Positions 4,793 to 39,665 of a stretch of 64,000 nt of DNA are shown here, one piece after another. A program made the translations under genes and the position numbers. Source of the DNA: Lachnospiraceae bacterium (lineage in GTDB: Bacteria > Bacillota > Clostridia > Lachnospirales > Lachnospiraceae); assembly GCA_017940415.1 (NCBI GenBank), contig JAGAYR010000016.1, positions 124,001 through 188,000 of the forward strand. The letters run 5' to 3'. The notes below the pieces were generated by a model. The model did not search any database and was not told the DNA's origin. It saw only the letters and a list, made by a program, of their open reading frames with translations. Numbering within the stretch: position 1 is the first letter of the stretch; every line of letters starts with the position of its first letter.

Positions 4793-6712
4793 TCAGAACT
4801 TTATAACCTTAAGATCCTTCATGTCTACCTTCTCTGCCTGACGCGCCGGCTTTGCAAGAGGAAGCTCTTTACCGGGTCTGATAAAGACAAGCACTTCATT
4901 CAGCTCAGCTTTTATATACCGGTCTCCTTTTTCAAGAACTTCGGTGTCATAATCATCATAACTTCTGAATCTTACAAGCTTCATGTCCTCAGGCAGGTAT
5001 ACATTTCTTCCGGTCCTGTTCTGCTCATAAACGGGTGCTATCATTATACTGTCGCCCACAAGAAGCTGGTCTTCTATCTCACGGCATCTGTCATCTTCTC
5101 TGTATTCAAAAGAAAGAGGCTTCATGTACATTCCGTTTTCATCCACCGCTTTCATGAACTCGGAATAAATATAAGGGATAAGTGCATATCTTAGTTCGAT
5201 AAGATTCTTGAAATCTCCGGTTCTCTCAAACCTGTACAATTCCTGATCTCTTGTACCCAGTGCGGAATGGTTTCTGAAAAGAGGTGTGAAGATTCCGAAC
5301 GCGATCCATCTCATCATCAGATCTTCCGTTGTATGTCCTCCGAATCCTCCTATGTCCGCTCCGGAGAAAACAAAACCGTTCATGCTGAGTGCAGGCATCA
5401 TCTGAATATTCATCAGAAGATGACTCCACCTTGATGTATTGTCTCCGGTCCAGACTCCGCCGTATCTGTGCATTCCCGTATAAGATGCTCTTGAGAACAT
5501 AAGGATCTTCTTATCCGGAGTGATTCTTTCAAAAGCTTCGGATGCGGATCTTGTCATATAGAATCCGTATAGATTATGTACTCTGTCATGTCTTACTTTT
5601 CTTCCGTTAAAGTCATGATAGAATCTTCTGTAATCCTCCGGGTTATTTGCAATGGATCCCACAACATCCTTAAAATCAAAGAATCCCCAGATATCCAGTT
5701 CTTTCTTTTCAAATTCCTTAACCTGAGCAAATACTTCTTTCAGATGATCTTCGGTATAGAAAATGGCAGGCTCGTTCATGTCATTCCAGAAGCCTTCGAT
5801 ACCCGCATCGGTAAGAACCTTGTACTTATCTCCGAACCACTTGCGGGCTTCATCATTCAGAAAATCGGGGAAGTGAACCTTTCCCGGCCATACTGCAGCA
5901 ACGAGATCTTCTCCGTTCTCTTTTTTACAGAAATACCCTTTTTCCTTACCCTCTTCGTATACATCATAGCCGTCTTCGATCTTTACTCCGGCATCGATTA
6001 TGGGAACAAGGTGAATCCCCTCTTCCTTCATCTCTTTTACAAAATTCTCAAAATCAGGGAATCTTTCCGGATTGACGGTGAAGTCCTTGAAATCCTGCAT
6101 ATAATCTATGTCCATATAGATCATGTCAAGTGGAATGCCAAGTTCCTTATATCTTCTTGCAACTTCCCTGATATCATCCGCAGTCTTATATCCCCATCTG
6201 CTCTGGCCGTATCCAAATGCCCACATGGGAGGAACATAGCTCTTACCCACAAGTGTTCTGAATGAGCGGACTATATCAAGAGGGCTTTTTCCGTTGATCA
6301 GATAAAATGTGGTGTCATTGTACTCGGGATGAATACTCATGACATTCGTGTCGGTATATCCGATATCAAATGTAACGCTTCCGGGATTATCGATAAACAC
6401 ACCGAAGCAATCCTTTCCGCCATCAACGATCAGAAAATTCTGGGAAGCATAAAGTGATGTTTTATTTTCATCATGAACGGGATCATCGGCATTATTGCTG
6501 ATATAGATCCAGCCTCTTTTGTTGATGCCGCGTACGGTTTCACCGAGACCGATAACCATATCCTTTTCGTTAAGACGATACGTAAAGGTTCCGGTCTCCA
6601 TATCGTAGCCGAATCCTTCGGGAATACCGATCATCTTCTCCGCATCGCAAACAACCGCACCTGTTTCATACGGATTTCCGAATTCATATTTTCTGATGTT
6701 ATCTATCTTCAT
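4793..6712 (-). CDS. GH31 family alpha-glucosidase
   Basis: This is a cytoplasmic glycoside hydrolase of about 639 residues with no signal peptide, probably releasing glucose from the non-reducing end of imported maltodextrins or isomalto-oligosaccharides. The GH31 N-terminal beta-sandwich is followed by the barrel. The nucleophile motif WNDMNEP and the acid/base region VWTGDNTS are intact, as are PMWAFGYGQSRWGY and YMDIDYM. The start at 6712 has GAGGAAG 6 nt upstream; a longer frame to 6733 lacks a good site. The gene ends 27 bp before the response regulator start and follows guaA after a terminator-like hairpin, so it is probably transcribed alone or with the regulator. Exact linkage specificity (alpha-1,4 or alpha-1,6) is not readable. 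Confidence 0.93.
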   Translation of the reverse strand: MKIDNIRKYEFGNPYETGAVVCDAEKMIGIPEGFGYDMETGTFTYRLNEKDMVIGLGETVRGINKRGWIYISNNADDPVHDENKTSLYASQNFLIVDGGKDCFGVFIDNPGSVTFDIGYTDTNVMSIHPEYNDTTFYLINGKSPLDIVRSFRTLVGKSYVPPMWAFGYGQSRWGYKTADDIREVARRYKELGIPLDMIYMDIDYMQDFKDFTVNPERFPDFENFVKEMKEEGIHLVPIIDAGVKIEDGYDVYEEGKEKGYFCKKENGEDLVAAVWPGKVHFPDFLNDEARKWFGDKYKVLTDAGIEGFWNDMNEPAIFYTEDHLKEVFAQVKEFEKKELDIWGFFDFKDVVGSIANNPEDYRRFYHDFNGRKVRHDRVHNLYGFYMTRSASEAFERITPDKKILMFSRASYTGMHRYGGVWTGDNTSRWSHLLMNIQMMPALSMNGFVFSGADIGGFGGHTTEDLMMRWIAFGIFTPLFRNHSALGTRDQELYRFERTGDFKNLIELRYALIPYIYSEFMKAVDENGMYMKPLSFEYREDDRCREIEDQLLVGDSIMIAPVYEQNRTGRNVYLPEDMKLVRFRSYDDYDTEVLEKGDRYIKAELNEVLVFIRPGKELPLAKPARQAEKVDMKDLKVIKF

Positions 6713-6736
6713 ATCTGCTTCCTCTGTATGCAAAAC

Positions 6737-6762
6737 GGGAGCCTGTTATATCAGACTCCCGA
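6737..6762 (-). terminator. Hairpin terminator after guaA
   Basis: On the minus strand CGGGAG...CTCCCG with an inner CTG/CAG pairing is followed directly by TTTTG, 17 bp after the guaA stop codon. It separates guaA from the GH31 gene. Confidence 0.6.
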
Positions 6763-6778
6763 AATAATCGACACGATA

Positions 6779-8410
6779 TTATTCAAGTTCCACGGTTCCG
6801 GGAGGCTTACTGGTGAGATCGTAGAGTACTCTGTTTACTCCCTTTACTTCATTGATGATCCTGTTCATGACCTTCATCAGTATGTCATAAGGGATCTGTG
6901 CAGACTCTGCGGTCATGAAGTCAATGGTCTTGACCGCACGGAGTGCAACGGCATGGTCGTAGGTTCTCTCATCACCCATAACGCCTACGGATCTCATATT
7001 GGTAAGAGCCGCAAAATACTGATTGGGCATCCACTCGGGCCAGTAGCTTCTGAGAAGTGCGTGGTCGGGATGTTCTCTGTCAATCTTGACGCCTGCTGCC
7101 TCTGCCGCTTCAAATGCATATTCGTTGGCAGCATTTTCAACTTCTTCTCTGTAGATGAAATCCGCATCCTGCACGATGGATACTTTTTCTGCGGTGATGT
7201 CTCCGATGATACGGATACCGAGTCCGGGTCCGGGGAAAGGCTGTCTAAATACCAGATAATCGGGAATACCGAGTTCAAGACCAACCTTTCTTACTTCATC
7301 CTTGAAGAGATTTCTTAAGGGCTCGATGATCTCCTTGAAATCAACATAATCGGGAAGTCCGCCTACATTGTGGTGGGACTTGATGACTGCGGATTCTCCG
7401 CCCAGTCCGGATTCAACCACGTCGGGATAAATGGTTCCCTGAACGAGGAAATCTACAGTTCCGATCTTCTTGGCCTCTTCTTCGAATACTCTGATGAATT
7501 CCTCACCGATTATCTTACGCTTGCGCTCGGGTTCGGTAACTCCGGCAAGTTTTCCGTAGAATCTGTCCTTGGCATTTACTCTTATAAAGTTAAGATCGTA
7601 ATGTCCCTCAGGTCCGAAGATGGCTTCAACCTGGTCACCTTCATCTTTTCTGAGAAGACCGTGATCTACAAATACGCATGTAAGCTGTTTTCCTACAGCC
7701 TTGGAAAGGAGAACCGCAGCAACGGATGAATCTACTCCGCCGGAAAGAGCACAGAGAACTTTGCCTTCTCCTACCTTCTCGCGGATAAGCTTTATCTGCT
7801 CTTCAGCAAAAGAGCTCATCTTCCAATCGCCCTTGCAATGACATACATTGTAAAGGAAATTTCCCAGCATCTTGGTTCCTTCGGGTGTGTGAAGAACCTC
7901 GGGATGATACTGGAAGCCGTAAAGCTTCTCATCATCATTTGCGATCGCTGCATAGGGACAATTGTCCGTAGTAGCGATTGACTTAAAGCCGGGAGCAATC
8001 TTTGAAATGTAATCATTATGGCTCATCCAGCATGTAGTATTCTCGGTTACGCCTTCGAAAACGGGAGATGTAGTATCAACCTTGAGAGGAGTATGTCCGT
8101 ATTCTCTGACGGGAGCGTGCTCAACATTTCCTCCGAGAAGGAAACTCATCAGCTGTGCTCCGTAGCAAAGTCCGAGAACAGGAACACCCAATTTAAACAG
8201 ATCCTTATCACACGATGCGGCTCCCTCTTCATAGCAGCTTGCGGGTCCGCCGGTAAGAATTATTCCCTTGGGATTCATTGCCTTGATCTGATCAAGGGGA
8301 GTCTTGTAAGAGTAGATCTCACAATAGACATTGTTTTCTCTTACTCTTCTTGCGACCAGCTGATTGTACTGACCGCCGAAATCTATTACCAATACCAGTT
8401 CTTTATCCAT
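6779..8410 (-). CDS. guaA: GMP synthase (glutamine-hydrolysing)
   Basis: The enzyme converts XMP to GMP using glutamine and ATP in purine biosynthesis. The N-terminal class I amidotransferase shows the nucleophile Cys in VLGLCYGAQ and the His/Glu pair in GFQYHPEV. The ATP-pyrophosphatase domain carries the P-loop SGGVDSS. The dimerisation domain ends in the invariant KPPGTVELE. The length of 543 aa is slightly above the usual 510-525. The ATG has GAAAGGAATG upstream. No guanine riboswitch is recognisable in the leader. It appears monocistronic, with a hairpin terminator downstream. Confidence 0.98.
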
Positions 8411-28184: not shown

Positions 28185-28213
28185 GGGCGGGGAATCATCC
28201 CCGCCCTCATTTT
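28185..28213. terminator. Strong GC-rich terminator between convergent genes
   Basis: A perfect 9-bp stem (GGGCGGGGA) with an ATCA loop is followed on the plus strand by TCATTTTATTTTT. It ends the diguanylate cyclase transcript and lies just after the EamA stop on the other strand. Confidence 0.88.
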
Positions 28214-29120
28214 ATTTTTGTTTTCTTTTCCGGCCCGGCACGATCTGTACGATCATGATAGCTGCAAACATCAGTATACTTCCCAGCATTTCCCTTGAAG
28301 TGAGCTTCTGATGAAGTATCAGGAAACCTCCCAGAACGGAAAACAAAGCTTCCGCGCTCATAAGGATCGACGCAACGGAAGGCTCTATCCTCGACTGACA
28401 TATGATCTGTATCGTATAGGCAATACCGCCCGAAAGCACACCGGCATACAGAAGAGGTATCCCGGCAGCCAATATCGATGACATCTTTACATCTTCAAGT
28501 GCGAACATAAAAACCGCGCTGGTTACAGTTACAGTCAAAAACTCGATGCACGCAAGCTTTACGCTGTCATATTCGCCCGCAAACACATCTATGGCCAATA
28601 TCTGAAGGGCAAATACCACGGCACAGCCGATCAGATAGATATCTCCGCTTGTTACGGTCAGGCTTCCGCTCATGGTCAGGAAATACAATCCGCATACCGC
28701 AAGAACTATTCCGATCCAAACATTAATTCCCGGCTTTCTTTTCAGAAAAAGTCCTAGCACCGGAACGATCACTATGTACATGGCGGTTATGAAACCTGCT
28801 TTTCCTACGGAATCGGTCTTCAGGATACCTATCTGTTGCAGATTTGATGCAAGCGATAAAAGTATGCCTATGGTTATCCCGGCTCTCCAAAGCTTTGCGT
28901 TCTTCCAGGAGCAAGCCTTCGGATTCTTACCGGTATTTCCGAACCTGTCATGTACAAAAGAAAACGCGAAGACCACCACTGCCGCCATTGCAAATCTTAC
29001 GGCGGAAAAAGTAAAGGGGCCAACCGTTTCCATTCCCATACTCTGGAAAGCAAACGCAAGTCCCCAGATAAGTGCTCCGAACAGCTGGAGCAGCGCAAAC
29101 CAGAAACTGCTTTTTTTCAT
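28212..29120 (-). CDS. EamA/DMT-family transporter
   Basis: This is a 10-helix inner-membrane carrier of 302 residues made of two EamA repeats, probably a metabolite exporter of unknown substrate. The first repeat opens with GALIWGLAFAFQSMGMETVGPFTF and the second with a GDIYLIGCAVVFALQILAIDVF block. The protein ends in a basic tail (PGRKRKQK). Its ATG overlaps the stop codon of the short Enzyme I gene by one nucleotide (TAATG), so it is translationally coupled and is the last gene of the operon. A bidirectional terminator follows. Confidence 0.9.
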   Translation of the reverse strand: MKKSSFWFALLQLFGALIWGLAFAFQSMGMETVGPFTFSAVRFAMAAVVVFAFSFVHDRFGNTGKNPKACSWKNAKLWRAGITIGILLSLASNLQQIGILKTDSVGKAGFITAMYIVIVPVLGLFLKRKPGINVWIGIVLAVCGLYFLTMSGSLTVTSGDIYLIGCAVVFALQILAIDVFAGEYDSVKLACIEFLTVTVTSAVFMFALEDVKMSSILAAGIPLLYAGVLSGGIAYTIQIICQSRIEPSVASILMSAEALFSVLGGFLILHQKLTSREMLGSILMFAAIMIVQIVPGRKRKQK

Positions 29121-30505
29121 TACGACTTTCTGTCCTTGTAGATTTTGTGAATATAATCCCGGATTTCCTGGTCTACCGGCATCTTAAGAATATCCGATGC
29201 AAGCTTTTCCGAGTCGGCAACGGTCCATTCCGAAAGAGTTCTTCTGACCTCGGTAACAGAAAGAGGATTTACGCTGAATTTTCTGCATCCGAATCCGGCC
29301 AGTATCGGGATGACTTCGGGATCTGACGCTGCTTCACCGCAGACGGAAACTTCTATTCCCGCATTTTGGGCCGAATCGATGATGTGCTTGATCAGACGCA
29401 GTATCGAAGGCTGAGTCAGCGACTGAAGATACGCCACCTTGCTGTTTCCTCTGTCGGCACTCATAACATACTGCACCAGGTCATTGGTTCCTATGGAAAA
29501 GAAATCGCACTCACGTGCAAGCATATCCGCCATGATTGCAGCGGAAGGCGTTTCTATTGTTGCACCGACTTTGATGTCATCGTTAAATTCAAATCCCTCA
29601 TCGCGAAGATCTGTTTTGATCTCATTGATCAGCGATTTGATATTTCTCATCTCTTCAATGCAGGTGACCATGGGGATCATAATTGATAAATTCCCTCCCG
29701 CACTTGCTCTTAAAATGGCACGAAGCTGGGTTGTGAAAATATCCCTGTGACCGAGACTGTACCTGACTCCCCTGTATCCCAGGAAAGGATTGTCTTCTTT
29801 TTCAAGATCAAGGAAAGGTATATTCTTATCGCCGCCGATATCAAGAGTTCTTACGGTAACTTCCTTGCCCTTCATTGCGGATACGATCCTTGAATAGACT
29901 CTCGTCTGCTCTTCCTCATCGGGAATGCGTCCTTCGCCGGACAGCAGATTTTCGGTCCTGAAAAGCCCGATTCCCTCTCCACCTTCGTCCATAACATGCA
30001 TGACGCTTAAGATGTCGGAAGCATTGCAGACAACCGTCGCCTCTGTTCCGTCCGCCATGACGGTTTTAAGATTTCGGTATCCTTTGAGTTCTTCCAGATC
30101 CGCAAGGTATTTTTTTCTTTTTACGGAATAAGAAGCAACTATATCGGAATCAGGTCTTTCGTACACATATCCGCCGGTACCGTCAACTATCACGGTGTCT
30201 CCGGAGGCAATCTCCTCAGTGGCGCGGACAACATCATAGACCGCGGGTATACCCATGGATTTGGCAACAAGCGCAGAATGGGAAGCCATTCCTCCGTTCT
30301 CGCACACAAGTCCCGCGATGCTGTAATCCTTAAGAAGCCCTACCATGTACGGCGTAAGGCGCGATGCCACCAGAACCGCTCCGGGCTTCATATCGGATAT
30401 TGCCGATATGAATTCATCGTTACTCATAACATCACCGGCCGGGGATGTGATAACCTTTGCGATGCCGATTCCTATTCCTTTTGAAACTATCGATCCGTTT
30501 AACAT
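29120..30505 (-). CDS. PTS Enzyme I-like PEP phosphotransferase lacking the HPr-docking domain
   Basis: The protein has the PEP-using half of Enzyme I but is only 461 aa instead of about 570. The first strand (GSIVSKGIGIGIAKV) runs straight into the phosphohistidine swivel domain; the phosphorylatable His76 is in GGMASHSALVAKSMGIPAV. The roughly 110-residue helical bundle that docks HPr is absent without any frameshift. The C-terminal barrel is intact: LFRTENLL, FLGYRGVRYSLG, GATIETPSAA, FFSIGTNDLVQYVMSADRGN and VCGEAASDP with the catalytic Cys. It should therefore autophosphorylate from PEP yet be unable to pass phosphate to HPr in the normal way. The partner is unknown. It lies between a HAD phosphatase gene and EamA. 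A canonical Enzyme I is encoded at 37049-38740. Confidence 0.85.
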   Translation of the reverse strand: MLNGSIVSKGIGIGIAKVITSPAGDVMSNDEFISAISDMKPGAVLVASRLTPYMVGLLKDYSIAGLVCENGGMASHSALVAKSMGIPAVYDVVRATEEIASGDTVIVDGTGGYVYERPDSDIVASYSVKRKKYLADLEELKGYRNLKTVMADGTEATVVCNASDILSVMHVMDEGGEGIGLFRTENLLSGEGRIPDEEEQTRVYSRIVSAMKGKEVTVRTLDIGGDKNIPFLDLEKEDNPFLGYRGVRYSLGHRDIFTTQLRAILRASAGGNLSIMIPMVTCIEEMRNIKSLINEIKTDLRDEGFEFNDDIKVGATIETPSAAIMADMLARECDFFSIGTNDLVQYVMSADRGNSKVAYLQSLTQPSILRLIKHIIDSAQNAGIEVSVCGEAASDPEVIPILAGFGCRKFSVNPLSVTEVRRTLSEWTVADSEKLASDILKMPVDQEIRDYIHKIYKDRKS

Positions 30506-30534: not shown

Positions 30535-31317
30535 TCATATGAGCTTGTAATACTTAAATGCTTTGTAGATTCCGTCTTCGTAGATTGAATCCGTAACATA
30601 GTCCGATGCCATCAACAGTTCGGGATTACCCTGTCCCATTGCAATTCCGTGTGCGGCGGATCTGATCATTTCCATATCATTCATTCCATCGCCCACTGCA
30701 TAAATGTTTTCCTCAGGCACTCCGTAATACTTTCTGACCATTTCCATTCCGGTAGCTTTGGAATGTCCCTTGGGCACGAACTCGACCACAATATTATTAT
30801 GATTTATCTCGTAGAGAAAATCATCAAGTTTCTCGCATACTACGTCAAAATCCGTCTCTTCCGTGATATCCGCACTGAATTTATTGATCGGATCATCCGC
30901 TGTTACCGTATCCAGCTTCCTCGCCCTGTCGCCAAGGGATTCCCAAAGGGTTTTGGCGAATGGATCATCGGGGAAATCTTCCGGATCGAAGAAACAGTTC
31001 CAGCTTCCTTCAAGAACAAGAGGCATATGCTCATTCCGCAGAACCTGAAGGGAAGTCTGCACCTGATCCCATGTGAGGAGCTTCTGATAAAGTATCTCTC
31101 CGCCTATCTCCACGTGACATCCGCATGCCGCAACAACTCCGTCCATTCCCAGTTCATCAAGTTCCTTGTACATCGTGTTGGATCTTGATCGTCCGGTATT
31201 GATGAACACCTTATTGCCCATTACCCTTGCCAGGCGAATGGCATCCTTGGTGCTTTCAGGGATGCGAAGCGTTTCATCCCATATGGTCATATCTATATCA
31301 AGAAAAATCAGATTCAT
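30535..31317 (-). CDS. HAD-superfamily (Cof/IIB type) sugar-phosphate phosphatase
   Basis: This is a cytoplasmic phosphatase of 260 residues. Motif I is DIDMT with the nucleophile Asp, motif II is INTGRS, and motifs III/IV are GHSKATGMEM and VGDGMNDMEMIRSA. The C2B-type cap (about 85-190) is as usual for Cof-like enzymes, which act on sugar phosphates or nucleotides. The ATG overlaps the stop of the DUF6020 gene (ATGA) and has CGGAGAGAAAG upstream. Its place next to an Enzyme I-like phosphotransferase hints at a shared phosphorylated substrate, which is speculation. Confidence 0.92.
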   Translation of the reverse strand: MNLIFLDIDMTIWDETLRIPESTKDAIRLARVMGNKVFINTGRSRSNTMYKELDELGMDGVVAACGCHVEIGGEILYQKLLTWDQVQTSLQVLRNEHMPLVLEGSWNCFFDPEDFPDDPFAKTLWESLGDRARKLDTVTADDPINKFSADITEETDFDVVCEKLDDFLYEINHNNIVVEFVPKGHSKATGMEMVRKYYGVPEENIYAVGDGMNDMEMIRSAAHGIAMGQGNPELLMASDYVTDSIYEDGIYKAFKYYKLI

Positions 31318-33146
31318 TCTTTCTCTCCGTTCATCTTAAGTCCCTCAAACCCGATCATGAACGGCATCGTAAACATTATCGGGAATGCATATCTTGCATG
31401 CTTCATAAAACAGGGTCCTGCCATGCATACCAGAAGAGATATGAGTTGCAAGGCATACAAATGCACACAGCCTTTGCGCCTTCTGATGAGCAGGATCATG
31501 ATCCAGGTCCACAGTCCGGGGCTTTGAAGCATTCCGAAAAACGAGATCCTGTCTATATATCTGTAAGCAAAAATAAGCAGCTCATCCGCGCCTTCGAACA
31601 ATCCCGTTCTGGGGAACAACTCACTGTCACCCTCGTACCTGACGGCTGTATCCGTTTCGGGATCAAACCATCCGTATACGCTGAGGAAAAATGATTCGAA
31701 ATATGTTCCGGGATGCTTGAAGAACATTCCCGTCCATGTCTTCATATATCCCAGGACAACGTCTTTTCCTGCGTTTGTATCATAGTATTGCTTTACGGGA
31801 TCCGAGATGGTGGGATCGTAGCTTTCGATCATATCCCCGTAGTTTCCGAAAAGTGCATTAATGCTTTCAATCTCTTCGGAAGTAAGTTCATCCTCATACC
31901 TTGTCAGATACAGAGCCGTCTGCTGCATGGGAATGGAAAGCATTTCCTTAAGTCCGTCACTTTCCGCATGAGTATAGGCTTTGATTCCCGATGATAATGC
32001 GGTATACATGCCCATGGGAAGTATGATCAGGACAAGTACCTTTTTTACGACCTCTTTGTTTGCACAATTCTTCAGTCCGTACACACACATTACAAGTCCG
32101 TTTACGAACACGATTATGCTTCCGTTATTCCTGCATGCGCATACCAGAAATGCAGCAAAGCATATCTTAAAGAACTTCTTTTTATCCGACAGGAACGCTT
32201 TTTCATCATCATAAAATGATATCGCGAGCAGGAAGTACAATATCACCGCAGCAATAAAGAACACATCTTTGATGGCTGTTGTAACTATGTTCGAATAGAT
32301 CGGTGACAGTACATATATTCCCAGTATAAGAGTAAGCAGGGGCGTCCTTGCCCCTCTTTTTTTCAATTCCTTAAGAGTAAGGGAAAGTGCGGATGCCAGC
32401 GCGATCTCCTGAAGAATGATCCATCCAAACAAACCGAGATCGTAATTTCCGAATACCGCTTTGAAGAGCTTAAACCACACTCCGATCACTGCGGTAAGAA
32501 CTATGGGATGATGCCCCGACCAGGGCATGTCGCCAGTATTCTGCATCATCTGCCCGATGAAATCCGCATTGTAATTTCCCGGGAAATTCAGGATCGTAAC
32601 CGGAAGCCATAATACGAAAAGGATCAAGATCACATTTCGAAACAGGTGCTCATCAAACACTCTGTCCATGATCTTCAATCCGTTATCAAAGGATGATACT
32701 TTCTTTAATCCGGCCTCAAAAAGTGCAAAGATAAGTCTGAAGATAACTCCGAATCCAAGGGAAGCCAGTACCGCTCTCAAAACGCTTGGGAATGTCACGA
32801 ATACACCGGACAGATTTCCGAATTCGGCAGCAGATCTTCCGAATACAACTATGAATCCAAGGATTGAGGGTAAGACGCATCCTTTCAAACACTTACCGAT
32901 CTTTTCACGAACGAAATAGATTGCGGCTCCGCACAGAAGTGAAGCTGCGATCATGTCAAACTGATAATCGCCAAGCATCGTAAAGATCCTGTGCTTAATA
33001 AAATCCTGACTCACTCTTCCGTAAGCCCAAAAGGGTAAACCTTCGGTAAAACGAAATGTAAGGGCAAATCCCGCCAAAAGCGCGGAAATAATAAACTCCA
33101 CCGCATCCCGGGTCTTATTCTTTTGTCCCAAGACATTTTTATTCAA
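31314..33146 (-). CDS. DUF6020-family multi-pass membrane protein (GT-C-like)
   Basis: This large integral membrane protein of about 610 residues has roughly 12 helices. The family-like motif FPGNYNADFIGQMMQNTGDMPWSGHHPIVLTAVIG lies after the central helices and resembles the catalytic-loop area of GT-C glycosyltransferases in DUF6020 proteins. Proteins of this type occur in surface glycan clusters, so a role in modifying an envelope polymer is plausible, but the reaction is unknown. No ATG is available at the N-terminus. The TTG at 33146, with GGGG 8 nt upstream and 4 bp after the previous stop, is the best start. It overlaps the HAD gene. Confidence 0.75.
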   Translation of the reverse strand: MNKNVLGQKNKTRDAVEFIISALLAGFALTFRFTEGLPFWAYGRVSQDFIKHRIFTMLGDYQFDMIAASLLCGAAIYFVREKIGKCLKGCVLPSILGFIVVFGRSAAEFGNLSGVFVTFPSVLRAVLASLGFGVIFRLIFALFEAGLKKVSSFDNGLKIMDRVFDEHLFRNVILILFVLWLPVTILNFPGNYNADFIGQMMQNTGDMPWSGHHPIVLTAVIGVWFKLFKAVFGNYDLGLFGWIILQEIALASALSLTLKELKKRGARTPLLTLILGIYVLSPIYSNIVTTAIKDVFFIAAVILYFLLAISFYDDEKAFLSDKKKFFKICFAAFLVCACRNNGSIIVFVNGLVMCVYGLKNCANKEVVKKVLVLIILPMGMYTALSSGIKAYTHAESDGLKEMLSIPMQQTALYLTRYEDELTSEEIESINALFGNYGDMIESYDPTISDPVKQYYDTNAGKDVVLGYMKTWTGMFFKHPGTYFESFFLSVYGWFDPETDTAVRYEGDSELFPRTGLFEGADELLIFAYRYIDRISFFGMLQSPGLWTWIMILLIRRRKGCVHLYALQLISLLVCMAGPCFMKHARYAFPIMFTMPFMIGFEGLKMNGEKE

Positions 33147-33150
33147 TACA

Positions 33151-34332
33151 TTAACCCCACATCATATATGAGACACCCATGCAGAGTCTTACGAAAAACA
33201 AAAGTCCGCACCAGGTATGATATGCAAGCACTGCTCCGCAGCCTGCCAGATATACTTTCTTAACTATGCTCTTACATGTTTTGAAGGACTTAAGATCATT
33301 TATCCACATGATAAGTGCGATTCCGAATATAAGAATTATCGTAAATGCATAGCCCCAGCTGAAATTCGCATCCATGTTTCTGGATCCTTTCTCGCTGAAC
33401 AGGAAATACTCCATATAACCTGTTCCGGCGCAGAGCCATGCAAAAAGTAAATATCTGTTCTTAAAGATCTCCTTTATGTGGAGAAGAAGCATCATAAGAG
33501 GAAATGCTATGGACAGGAAGCTTACAACGAGCAGATATCCGGTGTGAGCCGACATAGCTTTTCCCGGAGCTATCATGATTCCGTTTCCGCCTGCGCCAGC
33601 CCTGAAGAGCGCATTGTTTTGAAGTACCATTACCGCAAAAGAAGGAACAACTGAGGTGGCAAAAAACACAAGCTTACCGAAAGGTGCCCTCTTAGTGATC
33701 AGATCAACGATCAGAAAGATGAGCATCGCAGGAGTAACTGCCAGAAAGAAATTGGGCTTTGCCGCGGTTGTAAGTGTAAGGATACATGTGAAAAATAAAT
33801 ATGACTTGGTTGTCAGTTTACCTGCTATATCCTTTTCAATCCGCAGGTATACAAGGATAGTCCAAAGTCCCATCCACTTCATCATCAGATACGTAGAATT
33901 ATGCCATATGGATGAAGCATGCATTCCCATGTATCTTCCGTCCGAAAGTCCCCTTATATAACAGGGCATGACAATGTTCAGAAGAAGTGCAAGTAGTATA
34001 GCAACATTCGAATCGATCTTTTTATCGGATACTTCGATCAAAAGCTCCGCCGTAAAGAATACCGAAAGAGCCGCAAACAATCCCAGCAATATGGGAAGAA
34101 GTTCCAGTGTTCCCGCCTTGGAAAGCCCTATTATGATAAATGATATGAGGGAATAAATAAGTCCGTCATCTACCGCCAGACTGATATGAGCGGGGAGATC
34201 CGATTCATAAACAGCTCCTTCCGTCCAGCCCATAAACTTGTAATACAGGAAAACGCAGAGCGCGCAATACGTGACAAGCAGCACAGCAGCGGAGATCTTA
34301 AATACCGGGGGAGTTTTTTTCTTATCAGACAT
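33151..34332 (-). CDS. Multi-pass membrane protein, paralogue of the upstream gene
   Basis: This is a 393-residue integral membrane protein with about ten helices and no named domain that I recognise. It shares an order of motifs with the preceding gene product: an external stretch after TM1, a central LTLTTAAKPNFFLA-type segment, a GIMIAPGKA segment and a C-terminal EKGSRNMDANFSWGY. The two are thus tandem paralogues. The arrangement resembles polyprenyl-phosphate-dependent GT-C enzymes, but I see no clear catalytic Asp signature. The ATG at 34332 overlaps the upstream gene by 8 bp. Confidence 0.65.
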   Translation of the reverse strand: MSDKKKTPPVFKISAAVLLVTYCALCVFLYYKFMGWTEGAVYESDLPAHISLAVDDGLIYSLISFIIIGLSKAGTLELLPILLGLFAALSVFFTAELLIEVSDKKIDSNVAILLALLLNIVMPCYIRGLSDGRYMGMHASSIWHNSTYLMMKWMGLWTILVYLRIEKDIAGKLTTKSYLFFTCILTLTTAAKPNFFLAVTPAMLIFLIVDLITKRAPFGKLVFFATSVVPSFAVMVLQNNALFRAGAGGNGIMIAPGKAMSAHTGYLLVVSFLSIAFPLMMLLLHIKEIFKNRYLLFAWLCAGTGYMEYFLFSEKGSRNMDANFSWGYAFTIILIFGIALIMWINDLKSFKTCKSIVKKVYLAGCGAVLAYHTWCGLLFFVRLCMGVSYMMWG

Positions 34333-35536
34333 AGAAATATCCTCCGCCGTAAAGCATTACAAAAAATGCAAGCCCGCATCCCAAGTGCCATACAAACACA
34401 CCCCATTCAAATGCAAGCATCCAGACAGGCTGTTTTTTCTTAACCGTATTTTCTATAAGGAGCATGAGGCCGGATACAAATACAAAGAATATTCCGTAGA
34501 TATATCCCCATGCGAAATTGCAATGCTGAAGCCTGTCTCCCTTTTCGTAGAGACATAAGAATTCCAGAAATCCCGCCATCATGATTTCCCATGAAAGCAG
34601 GAAGATCTTGTTATCCTTAAATCTCTTGAAATTGAGCAGCATCATAACACCGGGGAATGCATTGGCCAGCATGATGGCAAGTACAATATTGTGCGTATAT
34701 ACTCCCCATGCTTTTCCGATGGCAAATCCGATACCGCCGTCATCACCCGCATGTGAATCCGATCCGAACACTCCGCCGAACTGGATAAGAAGCGTAATAA
34801 AGGTGGGGACGGCAGTTGCAAGAAGACAGAAGAATTCTTTGGTCTTCTTGCCCTTGGATATGATCAGCCTGACTATCATATGTACGGCCGCTGCCGATAC
34901 GATAACCAACGTAAAGCTGGGTTTTGTGAGTGTGGCAAGAAGCAGGAATATTCCGAAAGTCACATATTCTTTGATGTCCACATGATCTTCGTAATAGGTA
35001 AGAATATGTGCAAAGAGGAAAAATGCAACTATCGCAAATCCCCTTGCAGCCAGATATGTCTGGTTATAGTAAGGGTTTGCGCTGTAAACGCCGAGATTTC
35101 TGAGAGTCATTCCCGGCAGGTAAATTCCCTTGGGAGGATAGAGCATCGATACAAAAAACAAAGCGTAAGTCGCCAGAAGGATAAACTCCTCATAAGCCGT
35201 TTTGTTTTTATTCTTATCGGGTACAAGGGGGCTTAAGTATTTGAGCATGAAAAATGAAAGCACCGCAGGCGATACGGAATTAAGAACGGTTGCGGAAAGG
35301 GCCGCCCCCATCTTAACTCCTGCAAACAGAGCAAAGAATTTACCCAGCATGAAATATACGGGATAGGGAAAATCAAATCCGCTGTCGATTCCCTGCATTT
35401 CCAGAAGATAAGCATCCACATCGGATCCGTAGACCAGATACTCGGTATGAAATGCCTGATTTCTGAACAACACAAAGAGAAGGTATGTATATGATGCGAG
35501 AAGAAGAATATATACTATCTTCGTTACTTTTTTCAA
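34325..35536 (-). CDS. Multi-pass membrane protein, paralogue of the downstream gene
   Basis: This 403-residue protein with about ten membrane helices is the first gene of the operon. It shares LATLTKPSFTLV, GIGFAIGKA and YEKGDRLQHCNFAWGY with its neighbour at 33151. I prefer the TTG start at 35536, which lies 9 nt after a GGAGG and gives the usual MKK-start followed by a membrane helix; the open frame continues to 35563 without a site. A TATAAT hexamer 25 bp further upstream may be its -10. The function is unknown; a role in envelope glycan synthesis or transport fits the operon. Confidence 0.65.
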   Translation of the reverse strand: MKKVTKIVYILLLASYTYLLFVLFRNQAFHTEYLVYGSDVDAYLLEMQGIDSGFDFPYPVYFMLGKFFALFAGVKMGAALSATVLNSVSPAVLSFFMLKYLSPLVPDKNKNKTAYEEFILLATYALFFVSMLYPPKGIYLPGMTLRNLGVYSANPYYNQTYLAARGFAIVAFFLFAHILTYYEDHVDIKEYVTFGIFLLLATLTKPSFTLVIVSAAAVHMIVRLIISKGKKTKEFFCLLATAVPTFITLLIQFGGVFGSDSHAGDDGGIGFAIGKAWGVYTHNIVLAIMLANAFPGVMMLLNFKRFKDNKIFLLSWEIMMAGFLEFLCLYEKGDRLQHCNFAWGYIYGIFFVFVSGLMLLIENTVKKKQPVWMLAFEWGVFVWHLGCGLAFFVMLYGGGYFYV

Positions 35537-35589
35537 AGCCTTAATCCTCCAAAAACATATCAAATAATTATACCATACGGGAAATTATT

Positions 35590-35636: not shown

Positions 35637-37052
35637 TCAGATATATTCGTTTGTTCTTGAATACTCTTCATATTTATCGTCCTGCTCGGTATGTTTGTCT
35701 TCTTTGGGAAGATTTGAGAAGAATTTCATCAAAAACGGAATGGATATAAGCGCAGACAGGATATCGGCGCACATCTGTGAACACTGGATTCCCAAAAATC
35801 CCATAAACAAAGGCAATATAACCAGAAGAGGAATATAGCATAGTCCCGATCTGAGCATCGACAGTATCGATGCCTTCTTAGCCTCTCCTATACTCTGGAA
35901 CAGCATGTTTCCCACTACAGAGATCGGCTGCACCACCACCGCGATGCACATAAATCTCAGTGCGGGTATTCCGTAATAAACGACCATGTCGTCATCTCTG
36001 AACACCCTGATTATGTCCGCAGAGAAAACAAAACCAAGAACCGCAAGGCAGGTCATAAGAATGGTTCCGGCTCTCCAAGTTGCAAAGCAGGCTTCCCTTA
36101 CTCTTTTATACTTTTTGGAACCGTAATTAAACGCGGAAACAGGCTGGAATCCCTGGCCGATACCGATCATGGTACTTCCTATAAACATCAGCACTCTTCC
36201 GTCTATGGTCATTGCGGCGATCGCAGCATCTCCGTAGGGTTTGGAGCATGCGTTGAGCACCATAGTGGACAAGGTTGCACAAAGCTGTCTGAGAAGTGAG
36301 GGAAACCCGGTCTTGATGATCTCAAAGACTCTCACTGCGATCTCTTTTGCAGGAAGCTTCAGATACGCCGGATTTATGGAGCTGATAGCCCTGTGTGACA
36401 GGAACATGTACAGAAGGATGCACAGACTGACTATCTGGGATACCATTGTCGCAATTGCCGCTCCTCTTATTCCCAGTCCGTAATTAAACATAAGTATGGG
36501 ATCCAACGCCATATTGAGTACGCCGCCCGATACCAGCCCGAACATGGCAAAAAACGCTCTGCCCTCATATCTGAGTACATTGTTAAGGACACAGCTTACT
36601 GCCAGAACCGGACCCGATATCAGAATATAAGTCGCATAGATCTTGGCATAGGGGAAAATAGTAGGAGTCGCCATCGAATTAATAAGTGCATCCAGACAGA
36701 TGAATCCCAACAGAGTAAGAAAGATGCCGGATAAAAGCGATGCGGTGATTCCCAAAGTCAGGGTCTTATCCGCTTCATCTTTTTTACCGGCAGCAAGAAG
36801 TCTTGCTATTTTGGAACCGCTCCCCTGACCATACATAAATCCGAAGGCCTGGAAAACGGATTGAACACTCATTACAATTCCGATGGCCGCGCTGGCACTT
36901 GTATTGATCTTACCTACAAAATAAGCATCAACCAGGTTATATACCATGGTGATCAGCATGCTTATGACCGTGGGTACCGCCAGGGTAAATACCAGCTTTC
37001 CCGGCGGCGTAAGTATCATCTTTTTATATTGTTTAGCTTCGTCATCGTTCAC
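35637..37052 (-). CDS. MATE-family multidrug/metabolite efflux transporter
   Basis: This 12-helix cation-coupled antiporter of 471 residues contains two MatE repeats. The first has PTVISMLITMVYNLVDAYFVGKI and the second has GFPSLLRQLCATLSTMVLN. Typical loops include GIRGAAIATMVSQ and GIGQGFQPVSAFNYG. The GTG start at 37052 overlaps the Enzyme I stop (GTGA), so the gene is coupled as the last of the operon. The substrate is unknown. Confidence 0.92.
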   Translation of the reverse strand: MNDDEAKQYKKMILTPPGKLVFTLAVPTVISMLITMVYNLVDAYFVGKINTSASAAIGIVMSVQSVFQAFGFMYGQGSGSKIARLLAAGKKDEADKTLTLGITASLLSGIFLTLLGFICLDALINSMATPTIFPYAKIYATYILISGPVLAVSCVLNNVLRYEGRAFFAMFGLVSGGVLNMALDPILMFNYGLGIRGAAIATMVSQIVSLCILLYMFLSHRAISSINPAYLKLPAKEIAVRVFEIIKTGFPSLLRQLCATLSTMVLNACSKPYGDAAIAAMTIDGRVLMFIGSTMIGIGQGFQPVSAFNYGSKKYKRVREACFATWRAGTILMTCLAVLGFVFSADIIRVFRDDDMVVYYGIPALRFMCIAVVVQPISVVGNMLFQSIGEAKKASILSMLRSGLCYIPLLVILPLFMGFLGIQCSQMCADILSALISIPFLMKFFSNLPKEDKHTEQDDKYEEYSRTNEYI

Positions 37053-38740
37053 TTCAAAATCTCTTTTATCTTCTCCACGGTATCGGCTTCCAGCACAAGA
37101 GATGTTAAACTTCTGCAGCTGGACATGGTCAGGCCGCGAACAGCTCGTTTTATCTCTTCCACTTTGTAAGGAGATACGCTAAGGTTCTTTACTCCAAGCC
37201 CTAAGAATACGGGGAGCATGCAGGTATCTGATGCTGCTTCTCCGCAGACCGTAACAGGTATTCCAACAGAGATGGCCGCATCACATATCTGCTTCACAGC
37301 CCTGATAACCGCAGGCTGATATATGCTCACATAACCTGCCATTGCGGGGTTTCCTCTGTCGGCACACATTATGTACTGGGACAGATCGTTGGTTCCTATC
37401 GAAAAGAAATCGACTTCCCTGGCCAACTCACGGGCACACATAACAGCGGCAGGAGTCTCCATCATGCACCCCAGCTTTATATCCTCGCGATAGGATAAGC
37501 CGTGCTTGCCCAGTTCATATCTGCATCCTTCTATAAGATGCCTTGCTTCGATAACTTCGGAAAGTGAAGTTACCATGGGTATCATGATATCTATCTTTCT
37601 GCCCTTTGATGCTTTAAGGATTGCCCTGGCCTGGATCATAAAACTGTCGGGATCAAGAAGGCTTCTTCTTATACCCCTTAAGCCCAGTGCAGGATTATCC
37701 GTATGACTTTCGCTTTCCAATAGTGCATCCGGCCCCTTGTCGCCGCCCACGTCCATGGTTCTGATAACAACATCCTTGCCGGCAAAAGAATCCGCTATGC
37801 GCGCATATATCTCTTCCTGTTCATTTTCGGGATAATTTAAACCGCCGCTCATAAACAGGAACTCCGTTCTTACAAGACCTGCTCCGTCGGAATATGCTGC
37901 CTCCTCCGGAACGTCCCCGGAACTGATATTGCACAATACTCCTATCTGAGTTCCGTCCTTGGTCTTTACGGGTTCAGAAACAATTCCCTTAGTCTCTTTA
38001 GGCTTCTTTATCACAGGAACAGCCTTGCCGGAATACATGGCTTTTTCCTCGGAAGTGGGATCTATTATAACGATTCCGTTTCTTCCGTCCACAATGCATT
38101 CTTTATTATCCGATACATCTTCGGAAGTGTAAGGAACTCCGAATACCGCAACGATCCCCATGGATCTGAGGATTACGGCAGCATGCGAAGCCCCGCTTCC
38201 CCCGCGCATTACGACAGCTTTTACATTCTCTGCCTTACAGCTTACTATCTGTGCCGCAGAAAGCCTGTCTGCAAATATGACATCTCCGTCAGATTCCGCA
38301 ACATTCTCCTGAGCCCCGGTTACCTCACCGCCCATAAGAGACATAATCCCGTTTTTTACTTCCTCAAGATCTTCGTTTCTGGCAGCAACCGTCTCATCGC
38401 CTGAAGCATTCAGCATATCAGAATATTTCTTACACGCTTCTTCCAGTGCTTCATCGGCAAACATTCCGGAATCGATCAGTTCCAGAACATCATCGGACAA
38501 AACAGGATCTCTGGATATCATGATCTGAGCGGATATGATATCCGAGCCCTCTTTGCTGGAACTTTCGGAAGCCACTTTTTTCATTGAACTTTCGAATTCC
38601 AAAAGAGCATCAAAAAAACGCATCCTCTCGAAGTCCGCGTCAGCCTTCTCCCGCTTTGCTTCGCCGGAGCCTGACGCAAACCTCTCACGGATACGTCCTA
38701 TTACGATTCCATCATTAATGGGTAATCCTTTATACTTCAT
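37049..38740 (-). CDS. ptsI: PTS Enzyme I, full length
   Basis: Enzyme I takes phosphate from PEP and gives it to HPr at the start of the sugar PTS. All parts are present in 563 residues. The helical HPr-docking region spans about 30-140. The phosphohistidine domain has His186 in GGSGASHAAVILRSMGI. The PEP barrel has LVRTEFLF, LGLRGIRRSL, METPAAV, FFSIGTNDLSQYIMCADRGN and VCGEAASD. It overlaps the 3' end of fruK by 11 bp and the MATE start by 4 bp. HPr itself is not in the window. It provides the reference against which the short paralogue at 29120 is clearly reduced. Confidence 0.95.
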   Translation of the reverse strand: MKYKGLPINDGIVIGRIRERFASGSGEAKREKADADFERMRFFDALLEFESSMKKVASESSSKEGSDIISAQIMISRDPVLSDDVLELIDSGMFADEALEEACKKYSDMLNASGDETVAARNEDLEEVKNGIMSLMGGEVTGAQENVAESDGDVIFADRLSAAQIVSCKAENVKAVVMRGGSGASHAAVILRSMGIVAVFGVPYTSEDVSDNKECIVDGRNGIVIIDPTSEEKAMYSGKAVPVIKKPKETKGIVSEPVKTKDGTQIGVLCNISSGDVPEEAAYSDGAGLVRTEFLFMSGGLNYPENEQEEIYARIADSFAGKDVVIRTMDVGGDKGPDALLESESHTDNPALGLRGIRRSLLDPDSFMIQARAILKASKGRKIDIMIPMVTSLSEVIEARHLIEGCRYELGKHGLSYREDIKLGCMMETPAAVMCARELAREVDFFSIGTNDLSQYIMCADRGNPAMAGYVSIYQPAVIRAVKQICDAAISVGIPVTVCGEAASDTCMLPVFLGLGVKNLSVSPYKVEEIKRAVRGLTMSSCRSLTSLVLEADTVEKIKEILK

Positions 38741-39665
38741 CGAATACCTTCATTATCTCTTCATACTCGGGAAGCTTACCTTCGAATACGGCTGCACTTC
38801 CGGCAGCAACACCGAGTTTAAGAGCATATCCCGGATCATGTTCATCGAGGAATCCCTTGATAAATCCGGCGGTCATCGAATCTCCCGCACCGAATGCACC
38901 GAGTGCTTTTCCGGCAGGAGCCTTGCACTTATGAACTTCACCGTTTTTATCAAGAAGGAGCGCGCCGTCCGCCCCCATAGATACTATAACATTCTCCGCG
39001 CCTTCTTTGTGAAGTTTTTCTGCTTCTTTGGTGATATCTTCGATACTCTTAAGTTCTTTTCCGGAAGCCTGGCAAAGTTCTTCGAGATTGGGTTTGATAA
39101 GGAAAGGTTTATACTTCAGGGCTTTCCCCAGCCTGTCACCCGTCATATCTACAACAACCTTAACGCCTTCGGGAACAGCTTTCAGGATTCTCTCCAGAGT
39201 ATCTTCAGGTGACTTGGCAGGCATGCTTCCGGCAATAACAAGAAAATCCTCATCGGTCAGTTTCTCTATTTTCTCGCAGAGTTCGTCAACAGACTCATCC
39301 TCAACAAGAGGTCCTGCCGCATTAAGCTCGGTCTCTTCATATCCGCGCTCTGCTGCATCATCAAAGGGAGTTCTTATCTTAACATTGATACGGCTGATAC
39401 CGTTCTTATAAGGAAGCATAATGAAACCTGTGCGGATTCCGATGCTTCTTAAGGTTCCTTCTATCTCATCTCCCGTTGCTCCGGCAATGAATCCAAGAGC
39501 TCTGGTGGGAACATCCAGATTCTTGAGGACAACGGATACATTGATACCCTTACCGCCCGCACGGAGTTCTTCCCTGTCGGATCTGTTTGTTCCGCCCTTT
39601 TTAAGGTATGCGGAAGGATACATTACATAATCAAGTGACGGGTTCAAAGTAAGAGTATAGACCAT
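38730..39665 (-). CDS. fruK: 1-phosphofructokinase
   Basis: This PfkB-family kinase phosphorylates fructose-1-phosphate to fructose-1,6-bisphosphate after PTS uptake of fructose. The N-terminal VYTLTLNPSLDYVMY and AGGKGINVSVVLKNL are typical for the FruK/LacC group, and the catalytic base lies in GAFGAGDSMTAGF. The length of 311 aa is normal. AAGGAGG precedes the ATG, 1 nt after the trkH stop. A fructose EII is not seen nearby. Tagatose-6-phosphate kinase is the main alternative. Its coupling to Enzyme I supports a PTS role. Confidence 0.9.
   Translation of the reverse strand: MVYTLTLNPSLDYVMYPSAYLKKGGTNRSDREELRAGGKGINVSVVLKNLDVPTRALGFIAGATGDEIEGTLRSIGIRTGFIMLPYKNGISRINVKIRTPFDDAAERGYEETELNAAGPLVEDESVDELCEKIEKLTDEDFLVIAGSMPAKSPEDTLERILKAVPEGVKVVVDMTGDRLGKALKYKPFLIKPNLEELCQASGKELKSIEDITKEAEKLHKEGAENVIVSMGADGALLLDKNGEVHKCKAPAGKALGAFGAGDSMTAGFIKGFLDEHDPGYALKLGVAAGSAAVFEGKLPEYEEIMKVFDEV

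What the first reader, a model, noticed from the sequence alone, without database searches (positions are those of the whole stretch)
29120..30505. Enzyme I paralogue that lacks the HPr-docking domain but keeps all catalytic residues
The protein keeps the phosphohistidine domain (His76 in GGMASHSAL) and the complete PEP barrel including the catalytic Cys, yet about 110 residues forming the HPr-binding helical bundle are missing cleanly from the reading frame. A full Enzyme I is encoded 7 kb away. Established knowledge: that bundle is what recognises HPr. Inference: this protein accepts phosphate from PEP and hands it to a different, undescribed partner, possibly linked to the HAD phosphatase and membrane-protein genes of its operon.
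Basis: partly seen in the sequence, partly recalled or inferred. Interest (0 to 1): 0.75.

Follow-up and report, generated by a model that had tools for sequence, protein, structure and literature searches.

The report
Enzyme I lacking its HPr-docking domain
A group of uncultured Lachnospiraceae-type bacteria carries, beside a full-length sugar-phosphotransferase Enzyme I, a conserved shortened copy that keeps the catalytic residues but lacks the part that docks its usual partner, so it may pass phosphate to something else.

Summary
Window 29120-30505 (-) encodes a 461-aa Enzyme I (EI) paralogue with the phosphohistidine domain and PEP barrel but no PF05524 helical (HPr-docking) subdomain; a ~16-residue linker stands where E. 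coli has ~129 residues. It is not an isolated deletion: 14 of 31 genus genomes searched carry it, as one clade (100/100), each with a full EI gene (broken in G021). By frame length no other short form appeared among the 100 of 166 order-level and 71 of 199 phylum-level genomes with an EI match (own genome counted in both). Catalytic residues are kept in 14 of 14; dN/dS is 0.04-0.09 in 13 nearer pairs and below the full EI in 13 of 15. No stand-alone docking domain above cut-off was found in 16 genomes. The protein matches a laboratory E. coli construct that binds PEP about 12-fold tighter (PMC5537066). Best reading: a PEP-autophosphorylating enzyme uncoupled from HPr docking; its acceptor, if any, is unknown. 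The HAD link is weak; the adjacent EamA transporter gene (12 of 14) is a better candidate.

The parts
29120..30505 (-). Short Enzyme I paralogue (461 aa): phosphohistidine domain + PEP barrel, HPr-docking alpha subdomain absent
30398..30445 (-). Linker (residues 21-36) that replaces the missing helical subdomain; variable in sequence and length among relatives
28212..29120 (-). EamA/DMT-family transporter gene; its start codon overlaps the short EI stop codon (TAATG)
30535..31317 (-). Cof-type HAD-IIB phosphatase-like gene upstream, same strand, 29 bp gap
31314..33146 (-). DUF6020 membrane protein
37049..38740 (-). Full-length Enzyme I (563 aa) with the HPr-docking domain; by position (next to PfkB) the ordinary EI
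38730..39665 (-). PfkB-family hexose kinase (1-PFK-like), neighbour of the full EI

Best explanation
The gene encodes a natural Enzyme I without its EIN-alpha subdomain. Shown from sequence: the domain loss, kept catalytic residues, purifying selection, retention across a clade, and a separate EI with the docking domain in the same genome. Inferred, probable: it dimerises through its barrel, binds PEP and phosphorylates its own His76. Inferred by analogy with a laboratory construct: because the hinge movement that separates the two N-terminal subdomains is no longer needed, it should bind PEP more tightly than a full EI and be closed or phosphorylated at lower PEP. Inferred, less certain: lacking the docking bundle it does not feed HPr but serves a second branch, with a protein other than HPr as phosphate acceptor or target; the co-encoded EamA transporter is the first candidate to test.
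For: Domain content of P0001 and of the 13 short forms scanned; catalytic residues in 14 of 14; one clade of 14, 100/100; dN/dS 0.04-0.09 in the 13 nearer pairs, lower than the full EI in 13 of 15 chosen pairs; mean pairwise identity of the short forms is higher than that of the paired full forms (68.6 v 62.9% phosphohistidine domain, 73.3 v 65.5% barrel; 66 pairs of 12 genomes). The full EI keeps its docking domain about as conserved as its barrel (64.8 v 65.5%) and keeps E39, D82, A103, D129 in 15 of 15 rows, so HPr is presumably already served. PMC5537066 (abstract and parts 1-2 of 4 read, plus passages): the E. coli construct EI(1-21, 146-575), H189A, is listed with a PEP KD of 0.037 against 0.43 micromolar for the parent; its deletion points nearly coincide with the natural ones (1-20 / 150-). 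EamA directly follows the short EI in 12 of 14 genomes.
Against: No acceptor was found, and partner genes were looked for only among neighbours and HPr/EII families. No experiment and no structure model (prediction tool switched off). G024 and G021 show no EamA match beside the short EI and G010 lacks both genes there, so EamA is not an obligate partner. Positions near His189 that are conserved in most other EIs are changed in the short form (S166, T168, T181, I192), so the chemistry may differ. D132 of the docking domain is E in 15 of 15 paired full EIs, so HPr docking by the full EI may also have changed. HPr might still be phosphorylated slowly by collision. dS exceeds 1 in 12 of 15 short-form pairs, so dN/dS is rough.
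Confidence: 0.5

Rival explanations
1. It works on the PTS after all, as a partner of the full EI: mixed dimers in which the short subunit changes the PEP response of the full EI or lends it its active site (helper or decoy).
For: Found together in 14 of 14 carriers. In vitro intragenic complementation of EI, and complementation of the N-domain by the C-domain, are in print (titles seen only in the reference list of PMC5537066). Y474, in the beta6-alpha6 dimer loop, is conserved in 41 of 45 other EIs and lost in both paralogues.
Against: G010 has the same kind of full EI and no short EI was found in it. The short form's dimer loops agree with the consensus of other EIs at 0.64, the paired full EI's at 0.49; F354 is F in 13 of 13 short but A in 15 of 15 full rows, as if the interfaces had drifted apart. 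This is only suggestive: A at 354 also occurs in 8 of 45 other EIs, and of 31 strongly conserved loop columns 4 are lost in the short and 6 in the full form. Same-genome pairs are no more alike at the interface than pairs from different genomes (0.511 v 0.518).
Confidence: 0.2
2. A PEP-binding or PEP-hydrolysing sensor: it closes on PEP and signals by conformation, or slowly hydrolyses the phosphohistidine; there is no phosphate acceptor protein.
For: Predicted tight PEP binding by analogy with the E. coli construct (PMC5537066). No neighbour specific to the short EI is present in all carriers. 31 of 31 genus genomes lack EIIA_2 and EIIA-man matches and 23 of 31 lack an EIIC match.
Against: The histidine and the rest of the phosphotransfer residues are kept in 14 of 14, more than a pure sensor needs. 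No genome-wide search for partners was made.
Confidence: 0.15
3. It phosphorylates HPr directly without the docking bundle, as a low-efficiency second EI.
For: Only one HPr with His15 was found in the window's genome, so HPr is the only classical acceptor seen; HPr with His15 was read in 26 of 26 sequences of that type from the genus.
Against: The HPr-binding subdomain is the part that is missing (its role: PMC5537066, parts read; PMC8295985, passages); an EI with it is present.
Confidence: 0.1
4. A decaying gene copy or an assembly artefact.
For: Not found in G010, whose locus is intact.
Against: 14 separate genome assemblies, complete open frames in 13, and two overlapping contig-end pieces 99% alike in G030; low dN/dS.
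Confidence: 0.03

Closest known systems
Enzyme I of the PTS (PtsI, TIGR01417)
   Same: Phosphohistidine domain, PEP barrel, catalytic residues; scores 448.6 bits against a cut-off of 341.7, more than the genome's full EI (389)
   Different: No PF05524 HPr-docking subdomain; matches the model only from position 146 on
Laboratory construct E. coli EI lacking EIN-alpha, EI(1-21, 146-575) (PMC5537066)
   Same: Same subdomain removed at nearly the same points (natural: 1-20 / 150-)
   Different: Man-made and used as H189A; the parts read do not describe a natural protein of this form
PEP synthase / pyruvate phosphate dikinase
   Same: Swivelling phosphohistidine domain without this helical insert (recalled), plus PEP barrel
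   Different: No ATP-grasp domain found; scores far below those models' cut-offs
DhaM and EI-Ntr (PtsP)
   Same: Specialised EI-type phosphoryl donors
   Different: DhaM keeps the N-terminal part and drops the barrel, PtsP adds a GAF domain (both recalled); neither lacks the docking bundle alone

Membership tests
Enzyme I (PTS) | HPr-docking helical subdomain (PF05524) | tested here: not met
   absent in P0001 and not listed for the 13 short forms scanned
Enzyme I (PTS) | Phosphohistidine domain with active His | tested here: met
   PF00391 and His76
Enzyme I (PTS) | PEP barrel with catalytic residues | tested here: met
   PF02896 and site check, 14 of 14
Enzyme I (PTS) | Phylogenetic place among EI proteins | tested here: met
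   One clade inside EI; sister to the paired full EIs plus 7 of the 8 second-group EIs of the genus, support 90/90
Enzyme I (PTS) | Transfers phosphate to HPr | not testable with these tools
   needs biochemistry
PEP synthase / PPDK | ATP-grasp nucleotide-binding domain | tested here: not met
   no such Pfam domain in P0001
DhaM | EIIA-man and HPr domains | tested here: not met
   no such domains in P0001; no EIIA-man match in 31 of 31 genus genomes
EI-Ntr (PtsP) | N-terminal GAF domain | tested here: not met
   no such domain in P0001

The most novel reading that the evidence does not exclude
The short EI and the translationally coupled EamA carrier form an HPr-free and EII-free PEP-driven system, in which phosphohistidine-76 directly controls the carrier or phosphorylates its substrate: a minimal PTS analogue in bacteria in which few PTS transporter components were found.
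Probability: 0.06. Interest if true: 0.9.

Novelty: new variant of a known kind. Interest (0 to 1): 0.55.

Why it matters
It is a natural EI in which PEP autophosphorylation appears separated from HPr docking, an arrangement that I otherwise met only as a laboratory construct. Sequence pipelines that use TIGR01417 would call it Enzyme I, implying HPr phosphorylation, probably wrongly. If it has its own acceptor, it would be a PEP-powered phosphotransfer branch outside the HPr chain, in bacteria where few PTS transporter components were found, and it predicts a measurable increase in PEP affinity.

Tried and rejected
Bundle supplied in trans: not supported; beside the 16 full EIs, one search lists 14 rows below cut-off (at most 16.7 bits, E 0.012-0.37), one of them the first strand of a short EI itself. 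A special HPr for the short form: the second HPr lacks His15 in 23 of 23 sequences read from all three groups of the genus and in the window's genome, so it is not tied to the short EI; a third HPr-like protein of the window's genome shows no His15 either. Functional tie to the epimerase/IspD-like/alcohol-dehydrogenase cassette: next to the short EI in 7 carriers, absent in 7, and present without the short EI in G010. Foreign origin by composition: GC 0.478 and GC3 0.502 are like the neighbours. Plasmids: the 25 listed of 396 records match from query residue 30 or later, no hint of a short form (371 not seen). Viral contigs: no relative. A 452-aa frame in G037 proved to be cut by the contig end. 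Structure prediction not possible. Literature: eight searches (listings and starts of abstracts, one search returned none) showed no natural EI without the docking subdomain; the library lacks most subscription papers. PMC2405797 on EI evolution: passages only.

Rows dropped or undecided: the residue counts leave out one short row (the G030 fragment) and two cut full rows; dN/dS pairs were 15 chosen of 66 possible among 12 genomes; the listing was cut. G002 (contig ends before the place) and G006 (no EI match; 82% complete) are undecided.

Full report
WHAT IS THERE. The ORF at 29120-30505 on the minus strand encodes 461 residues. Pfam finds the PEP-utilizers mobile (phosphohistidine) domain at 40-112 and the PEP-binding barrel at 140-426, and nothing before residue 40; PF05524, the N-terminal domain of EI, is missing from it and is not listed for any of the 13 short forms scanned. 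Aligned with E. coli EI, residues 1-20 match the first strand of EI and the match resumes at residue 37 = E. coli 150. A linker of about 16 residues stands where E. coli has about 129; it is variable among relatives. The coding frame leaves no room for an overlooked bundle. NCBI's EI model TIGR01417 is matched at 448.6 bits from model position 146 (cut-off 341.7), better than by the genome's own full EI (389 bits).

THE SECOND ENZYME I. The full EI at 37049-38740 carries PF05524. It lies beside a PfkB-type kinase, as the single EI does in 8 of 8 second-group genomes of the genus, so by position it is the ordinary EI and the short form is the extra copy. In the 16 genomes of the window's group (14 carriers, G010, G002) each has exactly one PF05524 hit above the cut-off, at the full EI. 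In G021 the full EI is broken into two frames, which may be real or an assembly error.

DISTRIBUTION. 31 genomes of the genus were searched: 14 have the short form together with a full EI gene; G010 has the full EI only, and its locus is intact there without the short gene; G002 has the full EI only but its contig ends too early; 14 have a single EI of another kind; G006 has none. In G030 the short gene is split over two contig ends, with 99% identity in the 191-residue overlap. Wider samples listed only full-length frames or contig-edge fragments, judged by frame length: 100 of 166 order-level genomes and 71 of 199 phylum-level genomes had a match at 1e-60, the window's own genome counted in both, and a few genomes are in both samples. 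One scan of the named genome collection gave three relatives, all titled as Lachnospiraceae MAGs, one of them from yak rumen; their contig lengths equal those of G027, G007 and G016, so they are the same records and not additional cases.

HISTORY AND SELECTION. In trees of 56 and 76 EI sequences built on the shared part, the 14 short forms are one clade (100/100) and the 16 paired full EIs another (100/99 and 100/100). The short clade is placed as sister to the paired full EIs plus most second-group EIs, with moderate support (95/75 and 90/90), so an old duplication followed by one loss of the subdomain explains the data, but the placement is not firm. The short form changes more slowly than its full-length paralogue: mean identities over 66 genome pairs are 68.6 against 62.9% (phosphohistidine domain) and 73.3 against 65.5% (barrel), and dN/dS was lower in 13 of 15 chosen pairs, 0.04-0.09 in the 13 nearer ones (the exceptions are G000-G007 and G000-G024; dS is above 1 in 12 of 15 short-form pairs and the pairs are not independent, so the ratios are rough). 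This does not look like a decaying gene.

CATALYSIS. The active-site histidine and the PEP-site residues are present in 14 of 14 short forms and in the 42 full forms wherever they have letters. Some positions near the histidine that are conserved in most other EIs are changed in the short form (S166, T168, T181, I192), and also in the paired full EI. The beta3-alpha3 and beta6-alpha6 loops that form the EI dimer interface (PMC5537066) agree with the consensus of other EIs more in the short form (0.64) than in the paired full EI (0.49); other EIs reach 0.72. Of 31 strongly conserved loop columns the short form lost 4 and the full form 6, so the contrast is modest.

A LABORATORY COUNTERPART. Lee, Yun, Kim and Suh (PMC5537066; parts 1 and 2 of 4 read, passages) made E. 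coli EI(1-21, 146-575), which lacks EIN-alpha, in the H189A background. Their Table 1 lists a PEP KD of 0.037 for it against 0.43 for the parent; micromolar is the unit that fits the listed free energies. They explain the difference by the hinge movement, which costs about 1.5 kcal/mol and is not needed without EIN-alpha. The natural gene makes the same cut at almost the same points. By analogy, the short EI should bind PEP more tightly than a full one. That is a prediction, not a result.

SURROUNDINGS. In the group the usual order is TrkA-TrkH-PfkB-full EI-MATE-two membrane proteins-DUF6020-HAD-short EI-EamA, followed by GGDEF and IleS genes; in four carriers (G018, G030, G023, G019) the stretch is spread over two contigs, and single genes differ. 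A cassette of ribulose-phosphate-epimerase-like, IspD-like and alcohol-dehydrogenase genes (members from two genomes named by family search; the others by size and place) lies between HAD and the short EI in seven carriers and not in the other seven, and is kept in G010 without the short EI. So neither HAD nor the cassette follows the short EI. EamA follows directly in 12 of 14, with overlapping stop and start codons in the window and its four closest relatives; no EamA match was found beside the short EI in G024 and G021, and at this place G010 lacks both genes.

THE REST OF THE PTS. The genome has one HPr with His15 and one Crh-like HPr without it, and an ORF that reads as an HPr kinase (the HPrK and Crh readings are recalled, not from a family search). 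No EIIA_2 or EIIA-man match was found in 31 of 31 genus genomes, and EIIC (PF02378) in 8 of 31, of the window's group only in G023. Other EII families were not searched and several assemblies are incomplete; the two nearly complete carriers, G012 and G028, have none of the three. The PTS here may be mainly regulatory; that is an inference.

VERDICT. The most likely reading is a PEP-autophosphorylating EI variant uncoupled from HPr docking.

Noticed in passing
L041 about 5276-7800 (and the same place in six other carriers and in G010, L089 7605-10167): A cassette of ribulose-phosphate epimerase-like, IspD/ribitol-phosphate cytidylyltransferase-like and zinc alcohol dehydrogenase-like genes sits between HAD and the short EI; it is absent in the window. 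It recalls a CDP-ribitol-type pathway (recalled).
   Followed up: partly
window 37049-38740 and orthologues: The paired full EI changes faster than the short form and has altered positions (A at 354 and R at 384 in 15 of 15 rows compared) although its catalytic residues are intact.
   Followed up: partly
G000 C1:67755-68054 (L078) and C47:49426-49593 (L079): A Crh-like HPr without His15, of a type read in 23 further genus sequences, and a third, shorter HPr-like protein.
   Followed up: partly
genus-wide: EI and HPr are kept although few PTS transporter components were found (EIIA_2 and EIIA-man 0 of 31, EIIC 8 of 31).
   Followed up: partly
window 33151-35563: Two neighbouring ORFs (393 and 412 aa), by eye membrane proteins, without any Pfam match; they cross-match each other in relatives at about 24-28% identity.
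   Followed up: no
G000 C41:34195-39057: Two neighbouring large frames (840 and 762 aa) match only the phosphohistidine domain of the short EI; they may be PEP-synthase-like or rifampicin-phosphotransferase-like enzymes.
   Followed up: no
L053 3340-5022: The full EI of G021 is split into two frames (145 and 386 aa); real or assembly error unknown.
   Followed up: no
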